Assembly: GCF_900188235.1 (NCBI RefSeq)
Contig: NZ_FZNT01000005.1
Location: 186,001-250,000 of the forward strand
DNA from: Lutibacter agarilyticus
Lineage (GTDB): Bacteria > Bacteroidota > Bacteroidia > Flavobacteriales > Flavobacteriaceae
Length of the DNA stretch: 64,000 nt
Reading direction: 5' to 3'
Part shown: in pieces, positions 36,031-40,106 of the stretch
Position numbering within the stretch: the first letter of the stretch is position 1
Layout: every line of letters starts with the position of its first letter
The notes under the pieces: model-generated
Told to the model about the DNA's origin: nothing
Databases searched by the model: none
The model's input: only the letters and a program-made list of their open reading frames with translations
Made by a program: the position numbers and the translations under genes

Positions 36031-36774
36031 TTACTTCCAGTATTTTGCAACCCACGGTGCTGGATGCACATAACGATACCATTTTCCCCAACCACCTTCA
36101 ACGGCTTTATGCGGATTAATTTCTCCGTGGAAAATAATAATTTTAGCACCTTCAGGAATTGTTGGTTTTTTCCAAATAGATATAGGAAAGCGCGAATTAC
36201 AATCGTATTTATAACTTGGGCACCATTCTTTTGGCCAATACTGTAATTTGCCTTTATTATTTATTTCGTGCGTTAAAAACTCCTGTTCGTTTCTATGCTC
36301 TTTAATCGCTTTTTCAAAATTGTTAATGAAATTTTCAAAAACATAACCGTGTTTTCCAATATCAAACCTGTAAACCGATGAGTTTCCAGTAATTCTCCAA
36401 CTTCTCCAGCTATGGTCTTTTATAATTCTAAACTCTCCTTCAACATCAAAAAAGCAATCAATATTATCTACAATTACAATATCTAAATCTAAAAATAAAG
36501 CACGCCCTTCTAAACCGTATAAATCTTCCTTTAGTGTGGTTAATTTTTTCCACATACGCTCTGGCAAGTTAGACGGAATATCAATCTCTGGAATAGGAAA
36601 ACATTGTACCTCATCTATAATTCCAGACTCATCATCGGTAAAACAAACCATTTTAAAATCGTAGGTTAAATTCTTTTTAACCATGGAGTGCAATCGGTTC
36701 ACATATTCTGCACCATACAAGGTTCCCCATTTCATACAGAATATATAATTGGTTATTTTATTGTTATTTTCCAT
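36031..36774 (-). CDS. Putative glycosyltransferase (GT-A fold, GT8-like)
   Basis: A 247-residue cytoplasmic protein. The segment RALFLDLDIVIVDNID near residue 92 supplies a DxD motif for metal and sugar-nucleotide binding. Other pieces fitting a GT-A enzyme are MVCFTDDESG near residue 44 and the final IIFHGEINPHKA with a His. Its first 11 bases overlap the end of the methyltransferase gene, so the two are translationally linked. Its role with its neighbours is unclear; modification of DNA bases or a surface glycan are both possible. Confidence is in the fold, not the substrate. Confidence 0.7.
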   Translation of the reverse strand: MENNNKITNYIFCMKWGTLYGAEYVNRLHSMVKKNLTYDFKMVCFTDDESGIIDEVQCFPIPEIDIPSNLPERMWKKLTTLKEDLYGLEGRALFLDLDIVIVDNIDCFFDVEGEFRIIKDHSWRSWRITGNSSVYRFDIGKHGYVFENFINNFEKAIKEHRNEQEFLTHEINNKGKLQYWPKEWCPSYKYDCNSRFPISIWKKPTIPEGAKIIIFHGEINPHKAVEGGWGKWYRYVHPAPWVAKYWK

Positions 36775-37768
36775 GTTTCTTTAAAATATGTAAATATTCA
36801 ACTGTTGAAGTTGCTTTGTGATTTCTGCTTGCTGTTTTATCGGCTTTAAATCGCTGATAGTTTATTGTTTTTAAGCTGTATTCCCCATAACTACTCATAA
36901 TGCTTTTAACCTCATTTTCAGACATTAACCCCTCATTATTATAGCTTAAAAAAATGTATTTAAAGTTAGCATTTTTTATCAATTCTTCGAAGAAAAACTT
37001 CACTTCATTTTTTTTACAATAATCCGATTTATAATAAGCACGTAATCCTGTTTTCCCCTTCGGAATAAATGCATCGTATTTTGCAATTGTTGTTAATAAA
37101 TGATAATTCGCTCCGTACTGTCTAGCATTGTATGGCGGATCTAAATATAAAATATCACCTTTTATTTCGTGAATTAATTCGTTACTATTTTTATTAAAAA
37201 CCTGATGCGAATTTTTAGTAATTGAAAAAATTGGCAGTACTAATTTTACTGTTTTTTGCGCTGCAGCTTTCAGCTGTTTTAAATAAGCGCCATAAACTGA
37301 AGCCGTGTTTGCCACTTTATCTGCCGCTTCAATTAAGGCGGTTAACAAATAAAAGTACTCGTTTTCCTTAATTTCATCAGAAGTTTTCCAACTTTCAATT
37401 TTTTGACGAATAGCATCTATTTTTTTTCCATTTTCAGAAGAAAAATATAAGCGGTTTTCACTACCTTTTTCACTATAATTTTTGAATATAAATCCTTCTG
37501 AACCTTCTAAATTATTTAAAATTTCCAATTTATCATCTAAGTTTAACGCTTGAAAATTACCAATATAATGTCTGTTCAAAACATAGCTGTAATATTCAAC
37601 ATCATTTGCAATAACTTGCTTTACTAGCGGTTTAAAATTACGACCAACAATACCTGTACCCGCAAATAAATCACAAAAAACTAGTTGAGATAAATCGTCT
37701 CCAACTACTTCTTTAATCGCCGTTTTTAAAAATGATGATAATTTATGTTTTGATCCTATATAATTCAA
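36764..37768 (-). CDS. D12-class DNA N6-adenine methyltransferase
   Basis: A 334-residue enzyme that methylates adenine in DNA. The N-terminus MNYIGSKHKL and motif I FCDLFAGTGIVG (33-39 core) bind S-adenosylmethionine. The catalytic motif is DPPY at 210-213 (LYLDPPYNARQYGANYHLL). It starts at TTG (37766-37768). It sits 68 bases downstream of a putative PD-(D/E)xK nuclease and overlaps the glycosyltransferase gene. The NARQYGxNYHLL tail differs from Dam-type GATC enzymes, so the target is not predicted. It is probably the modification half of a restriction-modification pair. Confidence 0.9.
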   Translation of the reverse strand: MNYIGSKHKLSSFLKTAIKEVVGDDLSQLVFCDLFAGTGIVGRNFKPLVKQVIANDVEYYSYVLNRHYIGNFQALNLDDKLEILNNLEGSEGFIFKNYSEKGSENRLYFSSENGKKIDAIRQKIESWKTSDEIKENEYFYLLTALIEAADKVANTASVYGAYLKQLKAAAQKTVKLVLPIFSITKNSHQVFNKNSNELIHEIKGDILYLDPPYNARQYGANYHLLTTIAKYDAFIPKGKTGLRAYYKSDYCKKNEVKFFFEELIKNANFKYIFLSYNNEGLMSENEVKSIMSSYGEYSLKTINYQRFKADKTASRNHKATSTVEYLHILKKHGK

Positions 37769-37836
37769 CGCTTAGTATTAGAAATTTTAATTTACAACTT
37801 GACTTCAACTTGGCTCAGCCATCAGACTTTTTAACT

Positions 37837-38472
37837 TCATTTAATTGCCCAAATTACATCGGCATATACTTTTTTATTATCTAAAGTTAAACACGGTAAT
37901 TTTGAGGAGTCAAAATTACTTAAATAAGTTGAGATTAGACTTTTTAACCAATGAATTTCTGACTTTAATTTCCAATGTGAATTTGTATCTTCATAATCAA
38001 TTAACACAATAAAAAGTCGGTTTTTATAATGCTTACGTTGTTGCTGACTTTGATTGTTATACAACCACGTAATTAGCTCGTGTTTATGCTTAATAGCATA
38101 CGGAATTGATTTTTTAAATCCTTTTGGAAATACTGTTGTTTTATGGTCAAACGGTATGGTTGAAATATAAAAATCGGTGTATTTATCTTTTGAATTTTTA
38201 TGCGGTTCAACATTTTTATGTTCACAAAAAATAGCTTCAACAGCTTTTGCCGACCAAAAGTTATACCACCTATTCAATGCATAATTTTTTATATCTGCAA
38301 TTGTTGAATGTTCTTTTACAACACCCTCAATTTTATTTAAAACAGCTTCAAAACTCGAAGTTTTATAAATAAAATTTGTTTGTTTATCTAGTTGATTAGT
38401 TTGTTTTGTTTTCCAAGCATATTCAAATTCAGTTCTTTTTTTTAATTCTTTTTCTAGCAATTCATAGTTCAT
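37837..38472 (-). CDS. Putative PD-(D/E)xK nuclease (candidate restriction endonuclease)
   Basis: A 211-residue protein starting at the ATG at 38470-38472. The pattern Glu79 (AVEAIF), Asp100 (TDFYIST) and Asp109-His-Lys111 (FDHKTTVFP) has the order and spacing of a PD-(D/E)xK active site. Beyond it, TWLYNNQSQQQRKHYKNR and RLFIVLIDYED look like a DNA-contact and core-strand region. It begins 4 bases after the acidic upstream protein ends and is followed by the adenine methyltransferase. I know this sequence type only as a conserved hypothetical, so the nuclease call is inference from motif plus context. Confidence 0.5.
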   Translation of the reverse strand: MNYELLEKELKKRTEFEYAWKTKQTNQLDKQTNFIYKTSSFEAVLNKIEGVVKEHSTIADIKNYALNRWYNFWSAKAVEAIFCEHKNVEPHKNSKDKYTDFYISTIPFDHKTTVFPKGFKKSIPYAIKHKHELITWLYNNQSQQQRKHYKNRLFIVLIDYEDTNSHWKLKSEIHWLKSLISTYLSNFDSSKLPCLTLDNKKVYADVIWAIK

Positions 38473-38476
38473 AATT

Positions 38477-39310
38477 CTATAAAAATTTCCGCTCAATTAT
38501 TGTCATAAAGCGTTCTTCATACTCTTCTTTAGTGCCCCAATCGTAATCGGGTTTTACAAATTCTTGTAAAAAAGTTTTAGCTTCATCTTCGGTTTTAAAT
38601 GAATTTAACTGCGATAAAACTCTGTTAAAATCTTCCTGACTTCCTTCAAACAAATGTTTTACAAATGCAATTCTATCATTTAAACCAACTTGTAAATTTG
38701 CACTAAATAAGGTGTCGTTTAGCGAGCGCGGTTTTGTTTCTTTTGAGGTTGTAATAACTGGGTTTTCTTTGGTAGCTTTTTCAAAAAGTTCCGTAGCAAC
38801 ATCTGAAGAAATGGCGTCTTTAAATTCATCTTCTAAAGTAAACTGAGTCGCTTCTAAGTCTTTTATATCATCTTTAACTAAATCATCTTCAACAGCAAAA
38901 ATTGCATCAACTTCTTCTTTACTTAGTATTTCCTTCGGTTCTTCAAGGATTTCTTCAACAATTTTCTTCTCTTCAAAAACCTCAACAACATCTTCAACAG
39001 TCTCTTCAATAACTTCCTTAGCTACTTCTTCAACAGCCTCTTCAGTCATTATAATCTCAGGCACAACTTCAACCTTTTCTGTAACTTCAATTCTTTTTTC
39101 AACCAAAAGCTCTTTTACCTCAGGCACTATTTCTTCTTCAGCAGCTTCAACATACATTTCATTTAAATTGGCATTCACAAACTTCAACACTGATAGTTTC
39201 TCATAAATATCACGTGCTTTTTTATGTAAAATAGTTACATCATCGTTATTTTTTAACTGTAAAATACTGTGTGCTAAGCTTACCAATTCAGCCTCTAATT
39301 TTTTGTGCAT
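38477..39310 (-). CDS. Acidic conserved hypothetical protein
   Basis: A 277-residue protein in three parts. Residues 1-45 are helical (LVSLAHSILQLKNNDD, IYEKLSVLKF). Residues of about 50-165 are a low-complexity Glu/Val/Lys stretch with repeated EEVVEE-type strings. The C-terminal 80 residues are a folded domain (LNDRIAFVKHLFEGSQEDFNRVLSQL, ending YEERFMTIIERKFL). That C-terminal domain is common in flavobacteria without an assigned function. It lies 4 bases upstream of the putative nuclease gene. Whether it belongs to that system or is an older neighbour of tdk is undecided. Confidence 0.75.
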   Translation of the reverse strand: MHKKLEAELVSLAHSILQLKNNDDVTILHKKARDIYEKLSVLKFVNANLNEMYVEAAEEEIVPEVKELLVEKRIEVTEKVEVVPEIIMTEEAVEEVAKEVIEETVEDVVEVFEEKKIVEEILEEPKEILSKEEVDAIFAVEDDLVKDDIKDLEATQFTLEDEFKDAISSDVATELFEKATKENPVITTSKETKPRSLNDTLFSANLQVGLNDRIAFVKHLFEGSQEDFNRVLSQLNSFKTEDEAKTFLQEFVKPDYDWGTKEEYEERFMTIIERKFL

Positions 39311-39488: not shown

Positions 39489-40106
39489 ATGTTTCTTGAA
39501 AATACAGTAAATCATATTGAACAATTTGGCTGGATTGAAGTAATTTGCGGCTCAATGTTCTCTGGCAAAACAGAAGAACTCATCCGTAGGTTAAAACGCG
39601 CCCAGTTTGCAAAACAAAAAGTTGAAATTTTTAAACCGGCAATTGATGTTAGGTATGATGATGAAAATGTTGTTTCACATGATGCCAATGAAATTAGATC
39701 AACACCTGTACCTTCGTCTGGAAATATTCGAATTTTAGCCAACGATGTTGATGTGGTTGGTATTGACGAAGCTCAGTTTTTTGACGATGAAATTGTGGCT
39801 GTTTGTAACGATTTAGCAAACCGAGGCATTCGGGTAATTGTAGCTGGTTTAGATATGGATTTTAAAGGAAATCCGTTTGGTCCAATGCCCGCTTTAATGG
39901 CCACTGCAGAATATGTTACCAAAGTACATGCTGTTTGTACACGCACAGGTAATTTGGCACATTACAGCCATAGAACTGCTGCAAGTGACGAGTTGGTTTT
40001 ATTGGGTGAAACACAAGAATATGAGCCTTTAAGTAGAGCTGCTTATTACAAAGCTATTCAGGAAGAAAAAATAAGAAAAGCTGAACAAAATAACAATGGA
40101 AAATAA
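39489..40106 (+). CDS. tdk: Thymidine kinase
   Basis: A 205-residue TK1-type salvage enzyme that phosphorylates thymidine with ATP. The P-loop is [10 protein letters not shown] at 21-30, and the Walker B/catalytic segment is [12 protein letters not shown]. The lasso region [15 protein letters not shown] has one Cys where zinc-binding relatives have pairs. The next gene, alr, starts inside its last codons (11-base overlap), so the two are coupled. Confidence 0.96.

What the first reader, a model, noticed from the sequence alone, without database searches (positions are those of the whole stretch)
36031..39310. Candidate uncharacterised restriction-modification unit: PD-(D/E)xK protein plus D12 adenine methyltransferase
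The 211-residue protein has Glu79, Asp100 and Asp109-His-Lys111 in the order of a PD-(D/E)xK active site. It directly precedes an adenine methyltransferase whose motif differs from Dam. Tight spacing (4 and 68 bases, then an 11-base overlap) ties both to an acidic protein and a glycosyltransferase. The glycosyltransferase makes a base-glycosylation or phage-surface role conceivable. The cluster stands between housekeeping genes, as acquired defence genes often do.
Basis: partly seen in the sequence, partly recalled or inferred. Interest (0 to 1): 0.62.

Follow-up and report, generated by a model that had tools for sequence, protein, structure and literature searches.

The report
CATG-specific restriction-modification gene pair
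Two neighbouring bacterial genes very probably form a classic DNA-cutting and DNA-protecting immune pair acting on the sequence CATG; the cutting enzyme belongs to a family that the standard libraries searched here do not name, and in other bacteria it is paired with an unrelated protecting enzyme.

Summary
The 211-aa protein has E79, D100, D109 and K111 in all 62 relatives aligned, and a confident AlphaFold model puts them in PD-(D/E)xK order. Its neighbour is a D12 adenine methyltransferase. In 299 Flavobacteriaceae genomes, all 24 that carry the nuclease also carry this methyltransferase. I read it as an orthodox Type II restriction-modification pair.

Predicted target: CATG. This was noted before testing; CATG is then the most depleted of 256 tetramers in three carrier sets (Lutibacter, other Flavobacteriaceae genera, and genomes whose nuclease has another methyltransferase), in all ten flanking contexts.

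Among 23 cellular genomes where no D12 gene of this type adjoins the nuclease, 8 have one elsewhere and 15 have an unrelated 'HPPY' methyltransferase, 13 of these directly upstream. Four loci carry a short HPPY gene, the nuclease and D12 together. The nuclease apparently keeps its site while its protector changes.

In Lutibacter the pair is not a recent arrival: it sits at one locus in 25 of 28 loci, tracks housekeeping genes, and has been lost in a few lineages. The acidic gene is core to the family and the glycosyltransferase optional; neither looks like part of the system. Cleavage and methylation remain untested.

The parts
37837..38472 (-). Predicted Type II restriction endonuclease, 211 aa, PD-(D/E)xK type (E79, D100, D109-H-K111), predicted to cut unmodified CATG
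   Evidence: E79, D100, D109, K111 invariant in 62 of 62 aligned sequences; AlphaFold2 pLDDT 91.4, pTM 0.89, with helix 58-84 carrying E79, D100 just before strand 101-103, D109 and K111 in strand 106-114; no named family in Pfam, NCBIfam or PADLOC, only a 22-residue weak PHROG match of unknown function
36764..37768 (-). D12-class adenine DNA methyltransferase, 334 aa, alpha motif order (motif I FAGTG at residues 35-39, catalytic DPPY at 210-213); predicted to protect CATG
   Evidence: PF02086 E 6.9e-47; PADLOC MTase_II PDLC03257 E 1.7e-131; motifs invariant in 14 aligned relatives; relative in Agrobacterium phage Atu_ph07, 46% identical, annotated 'ulcer associated adenine specific DNA' methyltransferase
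38477..39310 (-). Acidic 277-aa protein, flavobacterial core gene directly upstream of the pair; not part of the system
   Evidence: found in 77 of 80 family genomes; directly upstream of the pair in 25 of 28 Lutibacter-group loci and still there where the pair is missing
36031..36774 (-). Glycosyltransferase-like 247-aa gene overlapping the methyltransferase end by 11 bases; optional neighbour, not part of the system
   Evidence: PHROG phrog_1962 glycosyltransferase E 1.7e-14, no Pfam match; in 10 of 28 Lutibacter-group loci, 83-85% identical there
39489..40106 (+). Thymidine-kinase-like gene (tdk) that marks the conserved side of the locus
   Evidence: used as anchor; in synteny beside the acidic gene in Lutibacter-group loci. 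The name tdk is recalled from the sequence; no family search was run on it

Best explanation
A two-gene orthodox Type II (Type IIP) restriction-modification system with target CATG. The D12 methyltransferase would add m6A to the adenine of CATG on both strands of the host's DNA; the 211-aa PD-(D/E)xK nuclease would cut unmodified CATG in incoming phage or plasmid DNA, with E79, D100, D109 and K111 around the metal. Shown here: gene identities, invariance of the catalytic residues, predicted fold, tight co-occurrence with a methyltransferase, loss of the nuclease with the methyltransferase kept, and depletion of CATG in carriers. Inferred: cleavage, methylated base, cleavage position, dimer, and defence against phages. 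The same nuclease family is protected in other bacteria by an unrelated HPPY-motif methyltransferase, so the nuclease and its target look like the stable half and the methyltransferase the exchangeable half.
For: Catalytic residues invariant in 62 of 62. AlphaFold2 model pLDDT 91.4 with helix-E / strand-D / strand-DxK order. In 299 Flavobacteriaceae genomes searched for both genes, 24 have a clear nuclease match and all 24 also match the methyltransferase (one of them, G202, only at a contig edge); one genome (G252) has a full methyltransferase without the nuclease (Fisher 1.5e-34, relatedness not corrected). In Lutibacter, 32 of 38 genomes have the nuclease (one, G409, broken over two frames) and all 32 have the methyltransferase; G407 and G422 keep only the methyltransferase; no genome keeps only the nuclease. 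Target: CATG was noted beforehand (note). Then, by one-sided Mann-Whitney on O/E per genome, CATG ranks 1st of 256 tetramers in Lutibacter (15 loci, median 0.49 against 0.82 in 17 non-carriers, p 5.9e-5), in 20 carriers from other family genera (median 0.47, p 5.0e-7), and in 14 carriers without the D12 partner, against 16 class relatives without the nuclease (0.43 against 0.86, p 2.6e-4; next tetramer 0.009). All ten NCATGN contexts are lower than in the controls in all three sets, so the site is not an extended one. Methyltransferase relative in phage Atu_ph07 carries the name of the H. pylori CATG enzyme's family (the link of the name is recalled; PMC4450513, passages, gives hpyIM as a CATG methyltransferase). 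PMC4687349 (abstract and passages) reports that only orthodox Type II systems cause avoidance of their site and that long-resident ones do so more often.
Against: No cleavage or methylation data. Foldseek finds no solved structure at E <= 0.001, and the nuclease-like matches have only Z 2.5-3.0, a level at which unrelated folds also score. GATC is the second most depleted tetramer in the two Flavobacteriaceae sets (median 0.62 in both against 0.90). One Lutibacter genome without the pair, G413, is still CATG-poor (24 against 63.9 expected in 14 kb, O/E 0.38): a trace of recent loss, or a sign that lineage habit contributes. Single carriers do not show depletion (L216 1.12, L247 0.92), and one non-carrier does (L308 0.24). 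The p-values ignore relatedness, rest on 8-20 kb per genome, and loci under 8 kb were dropped (5 of 20 Lutibacter, 3 of 20 non-carriers, 1 of 15 D12-less, 4 of 20 class relatives).
Confidence: 0.85

Rival explanations
1. A Type II pair with another target, GATC being the best alternative; CATG depletion would then be a by-product of lineage composition or of other systems.
For: GATC is the second most depleted tetramer in Lutibacter and in the other-genera carriers. G413 lacks the pair yet is CATG-poor.
Against: CATG ranks first in three carrier sets; in the set with the HPPY methyltransferase GATC is not among the ten strongest against the Flavobacteriaceae controls nor among the twelve printed against class relatives.
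Confidence: 0.08
2. The methyltransferase is now mainly an epigenetic regulator and the nuclease a fading passenger.
For: Near-core status and vertical inheritance in Lutibacter; methyltransferase kept without nuclease in G407 and G422; hpyIM of H. pylori, also a CATG enzyme, affects gene expression according to PMC4450513 (passages).
Against: The nuclease is intact in most carriers: of 28 Lutibacter-group loci translated, one (L078) has a stop or frameshift, and catalytic residues never vary in the 62 aligned.
Confidence: 0.15
3. A repair pair of the MutH-Dam kind, the nuclease nicking unmethylated sites after replication.
For: Vertical inheritance together with an adenine methyltransferase; PD-(D/E)xK-type nuclease.
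Against: Patchy in the family (27 of 397 with clear match), clean losses of both genes at the site, partner exchange with an unrelated methyltransferase, and site depletion, all expected of restriction. Linkage to mismatch-repair genes was not tested.
Confidence: 0.03
4. A four-gene module with the glycosyltransferase, modifying DNA bases or phage-receptor sugars.
For: Tight spacing and an 11-base overlap with the methyltransferase.
Against: The glycosyltransferase is present in 10 of 28 loci and stays where the nuclease is gone; it scores to no Pfam family and to a general PHROG glycosyltransferase; the acidic gene is core with or without the pair.
Confidence: 0.03

Closest known systems
M.HpyI / IceA1 and NlaIII systems (CATG)
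   Same: Inferred target CATG; methyltransferase of the D12 kind whose phage relatives carry the 'ulcer associated adenine specific' name; hpyIM is a conserved CATG methyltransferase in H. pylori (PMC4450513, passages).
   Different: The NlaIII/IceA1 nucleases are HNH-type as recalled (no call); the present nuclease is PD-(D/E)xK-type. No NlaIII, IceA1 or M.HpyI sequence was held, so no direct comparison was made.
CviAII (Chlorella virus PBCV-1, genes A251R/A252R) and FatI (Flavobacterium, CATG; recalled)
   Same: CviAII is a CATG pair with an m6A methyltransferase (PMC7248222, passages). FatI is, as recalled, a CATG enzyme from Flavobacterium aquatile and may be a relative of this very family.
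   Different: Not testable: neither nuclease sequence was held; three searches of virus contigs gave no locus that could be identified as a chlorovirus.
FokI-type methyltransferases
   Same: Same D12 family; phage relatives annotated FokI methylase at 27.5% identity and LlaI methylase at 33%.
   Different: FokI-type systems have two fused or paired methyltransferase domains for an asymmetric site (recalled); here one 334-aa protein and a palindromic site.
PDLC03351-type 'HPPY' methyltransferase systems
   Same: Their nuclease is a member of the same 211-aa family in Ignavibacteria-group and other genomes.
   Different: The methyltransferase is unrelated to the D12 one (hhalign probability 2.6%) and lies upstream of the nuclease gene instead of downstream.

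Membership tests
Orthodox Type II restriction-modification system | Nuclease gene and methyltransferase gene side by side as separate proteins | tested here: met
   68 bases apart in the window; D12 gene adjacent in 58 of 85 loci
Orthodox Type II restriction-modification system | Nuclease is not found in a genome without a protecting methyltransferase | tested here: met
   24 of 24 family genomes; 32 of 32 Lutibacter genomes; the 23 cellular genomes without adjacent D12: 8 D12 elsewhere, 14 full-length HPPY, 1 HPPY end at the contig edge. Not settled for three viral fragments and the Priestia plasmid
Orthodox Type II restriction-modification system | Avoidance of the recognition site in long-term hosts | tested here: met
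   CATG first of 256 in three sets
Orthodox Type II restriction-modification system | Sequence-specific cleavage and protective methylation | not testable with these tools
   needs enzyme assay and methylome
PD-(D/E)xK nuclease superfamily | Conserved E / D / D-x-K in the order of the fold | tested here: met
   invariant in 62 of 62; helix-strand-strand placement in the model
PD-(D/E)xK nuclease superfamily | Structural match to a solved member | tested here: inconclusive
   no Foldseek hit at E <= 0.001; nuclease entries (CdiA-CT, McrBC, Card1, PA-N, EcoO109I) only at Z 2.5-3.0
D12 class adenine methyltransferase | PF02086 domain with motif I and DPPY | tested here: met
   E 6.9e-47 over 3-290; motifs invariant in 14
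NlaIII/IceA1 nuclease family (HNH) | HNH (beta-beta-alpha metal) nuclease | tested here: not met
   no HNH Pfam match for the 211-aa protein, PD-(D/E)xK-type model instead. That NlaIII is HNH is recalled
FatI / CviAII nuclease family | Sequence homology to R.FatI or R.CviAII | not testable with these tools
   no sequence held; virus-contig searches gave no identifiable chlorovirus

The most novel reading that the evidence does not exclude
The nuclease, not the methyltransferase, is the stable half of this system: one PD-(D/E)xK family with fixed CATG specificity has exchanged its protector between at least two unrelated methyltransferase classes (D12 and HPPY, and perhaps a third in the longer 369-374-aa relatives), passing through loci that carry both (short HPPY, nuclease, D12). 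In such loci the two methyltransferases may mark different bases of the same site.
Probability: 0.5. Interest if true: 0.6.

Novelty: new member of a known kind. Interest (0 to 1): 0.4.

Why it matters
The nuclease family scores to no named model in Pfam, NCBIfam or PADLOC, although 240 genome stretches encode a relative; a defence scan with the PADLOC library would see only the methyltransferase and call it Type II or orphan. It gives a testable specificity (CATG) to a nuclease without solved relatives, a clean natural case of methyltransferase exchange around one nuclease, and in Lutibacter a restriction system inherited vertically long enough to have left its mark on the genome. For the window itself it is an ordinary defence system.

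Tried and rejected
Solo nucleases: I first took the loci without an adjacent D12 gene as solitary nucleases (note). Wrong: the gene upstream is a methyltransferase whose motif HPPY my first pattern did not cover, shown by Pfam and PADLOC. I also first suspected a cluster of ordinary PF01555 methyltransferases shared by several of these genomes as the protector; dropped when the adjacent HPPY gene was found. Ten of the 16 records have some other PF02086 protein over the cut-off, so 'without D12' means without a match to the A2 profile only.

Synteny: my note says all Lutibacter loci share one site. On recount 25 of 28 have the acidic gene directly upstream, L054 starts at a contig end, and L058 and L076 have other upstream genes but the same downstream genes.

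Distances of 1610-1625 for L115, L118 and L126 are an artefact of my script; the D12 gene starts at the nuclease's last bases there (coordinates).

Fold comparison was uninformative. Solved-structure sequence searches found nothing for the nuclease or the methyltransferase. A Bacteroidota-type promoter pattern was below its chance number in the window (1 match, 7.0 expected; the pattern is recalled). Attempts to reach a chlorovirus CviAII pair through virus contigs failed. Literature: PMC13340088 (passages) mentions Lutibacter and methylation but no CATG; searches were seen as listings, with passages read only from PMC7248222, PMC4450513, PMC13340088, PMC4687349 and PMC4081073.
Full report
What is there. 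The window lies in a 4.10-Mb genome in 22 contigs. The nearest named relatives of the nuclease are Lutibacter records, and searches by genus return the same group.

The 211-aa protein. It has no significant match in Pfam, NCBIfam or PADLOC, and a weak 22-residue PHROG match of unknown function (E 0.0021). In 22 aligned sequences E79, D100, D109 and K111 are invariant, and again in 62, together with Q141, S142, R146, H148 and N151. H110 is L in one of the 62. The AlphaFold2 model is confident (mean pLDDT 91.4, pTM 0.89) and has a long helix 58-84 carrying E79, D100 just before strand 101-103, and D109 and K111 in strand 106-114: the order of a PD-(D/E)xK site. No solved structure matches well, so the superfamily assignment rests on motif, order and predicted core and not on a structural hit.

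The methyltransferase. PF02086, with motif I (FAGTG) before DPPY, the alpha order, and both invariant in 14 relatives. Relatives in phages include 'ulcer associated adenine specific' methyltransferases at 46% and 36%, and FokI- and LlaI-named ones at 27-33%.

Pairing in the family. The nuclease has a match in 35 of 397 Flavobacteriaceae genomes, 27 of them clear (E < 1e-20). Of the 299 genomes also searched for the methyltransferase, 24 have the clear nuclease and all 24 the methyltransferase, one at a contig edge; G252 has a full methyltransferase alone, and five further genomes have weak or fragmentary D12 matches. In most the genes adjoin; in G087 they lie about 31 kb apart.

Position and history in Lutibacter. 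Of 28 Lutibacter-group loci (L051-L078), 25 have the acidic gene and then the pair. The nuclease is in 32 of 38 Lutibacter genomes (28 of 29 of high quality), the methyltransferase of this type in 34 of 38; a 35th match, G413, is a different D12 protein (E 4.3e-44). At the site G413, G419 and G429 have no pair, G407 and G422 keep only the methyltransferase, and G411 ends at a contig edge. Distances of the pair's proteins correlate with those of five housekeeping neighbours (24 loci, r 0.85; 0 of 2000 permutations as high). In a tdk+alr tree (no support values read) the genomes without the pair fall among carriers, so losses are likelier than late gains. The acidic gene is in 77 of 80 family genomes. 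The glycosyltransferase is in 10 of 28 loci at 83-85% identity.

Target. Before any count I noted CATG as the guess, from the likeness of the methyltransferase to NlaIII/FokI-type enzymes (note; the likeness was recalled). Pooled O/E of CATG under a second-order Markov model is 0.52 in Lutibacter stretches against 0.83 in non-carriers, the largest drop among 256 tetramers, GATC second (0.67 against 0.94). Per genome CATG ranks first in Lutibacter (15 loci of 20; p 5.9e-5), in 20 carriers of other genera (p 5.0e-7), and in 14 of 15 carriers without D12 (p 4.6e-5 against Flavobacteriaceae; 2.6e-4 against 16 of 20 class relatives without the nuclease). Every one of ten flanking contexts is lower than in the controls in all three sets, so a longer site such as RCATGY is unlikely. 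P-values are one-sided, uncorrected and blind to relatedness. Against it: G413 lacks the pair and is still CATG-poor; the loss may be recent, and PMC4687349 (abstract) describes avoidance as a trace of lost systems. L216 and L247 are carriers without depletion.

A second partner. Of 85 loci (80 from bacterial genomes, 4 viral, 1 plasmid), 58 have the D12 gene beside the nuclease. For the 23 other cellular genomes: 8 have a D12 gene of this type elsewhere; the other 15 have an HPPY methyltransferase, 14 full-length (E <= 1.4e-148) and one whose last residues stand just upstream of the nuclease at a contig edge (L091). In 13 of these 15 it lies upstream of the nuclease on the same strand, 10 to about 1500 bases away where measured. 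It matches PF01555 with the two halves in swapped order and PADLOC PDLC03351 at about 1e-135, and has no profile likeness to the D12 group (probability 2.6%). In 149 genomes of one class the nuclease (E < 1e-90) is in 5 and full HPPY (E < 1e-130) in 16, and all 5 have both (hypergeometric 7.6e-6; four of the five were known beforehand). HPPY also occurs without this nuclease (11 of 149), so it serves other nucleases too. Four loci, L084, L092, L098 and L102, carry a 264-265-aa short HPPY gene directly upstream of the nuclease and D12 downstream; L101 has remnants of such an arrangement. The HPPY carriers are CATG-poor as well, which is the main reason to think both methyltransferases protect the same site; that they do is inferred.

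Conclusion. The finding is a real restriction-modification pair, ordinary in kind, with an unnamed nuclease family, a predicted CATG target and an exchangeable methyltransferase. Whether R.FatI or R.CviAII already belongs to this family could not be tested and is the main limit on any claim of novelty.

Noticed in passing
L332 1620-3825 (and L342 452-2654): A second, longer relative of the system in a Lutibacter genome and in G371: 369-aa D12 methyltransferase overlapping a 368-369-aa nuclease-like protein with E, D and FDLK kept (by eye), preceded in L332 by a 101-aa helix-turn-helix-like ORF.
   Followed up: partly
L333 2227-4906 and L334: 369-374-aa nuclease relatives next to a 531-551-aa protein with PF01555 methyltransferase matches: a possible third methyltransferase partner.
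   Followed up: partly
L343 3004-5015 and L344 3512-5509: 277-aa nuclease relatives with a full HPPY methyltransferase (383-388 aa) directly upstream.
   Followed up: partly
L084, L092, L098, L102: Loci with short HPPY gene, nuclease and D12 gene in a row; in L092 and L102 an extra gene of 206 or 219 aa stands between nuclease and D12.
   Followed up: partly
L326 983-2805 (G407), L327 1248-3163 (G422): Lutibacter genomes in which the nuclease gene is gone and the methyltransferase kept, 95 and 173 bases behind the acidic gene.
   Followed up: yes
L132/L281: A 69.9-kb contig of the virus collection with the nuclease and D12 gene side by side (51% each), while the other D12-bearing virus contigs fetched gave no nuclease match.
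   Followed up: no
L135 6001-6597: A relative at 33% identity on a 1.08-Mb Priestia megaterium plasmid; its own methyltransferase was not identified.
   Followed up: partly
Lutibacter and other carrier stretches: GATC is the second most depleted tetramer in the Flavobacteriaceae carriers; cause not sought.
   Followed up: no
L131 3328-5618: Virus contig with the nuclease overlapping the end of a 526-aa protein that carries a full PF01555 methyltransferase domain.
   Followed up: no
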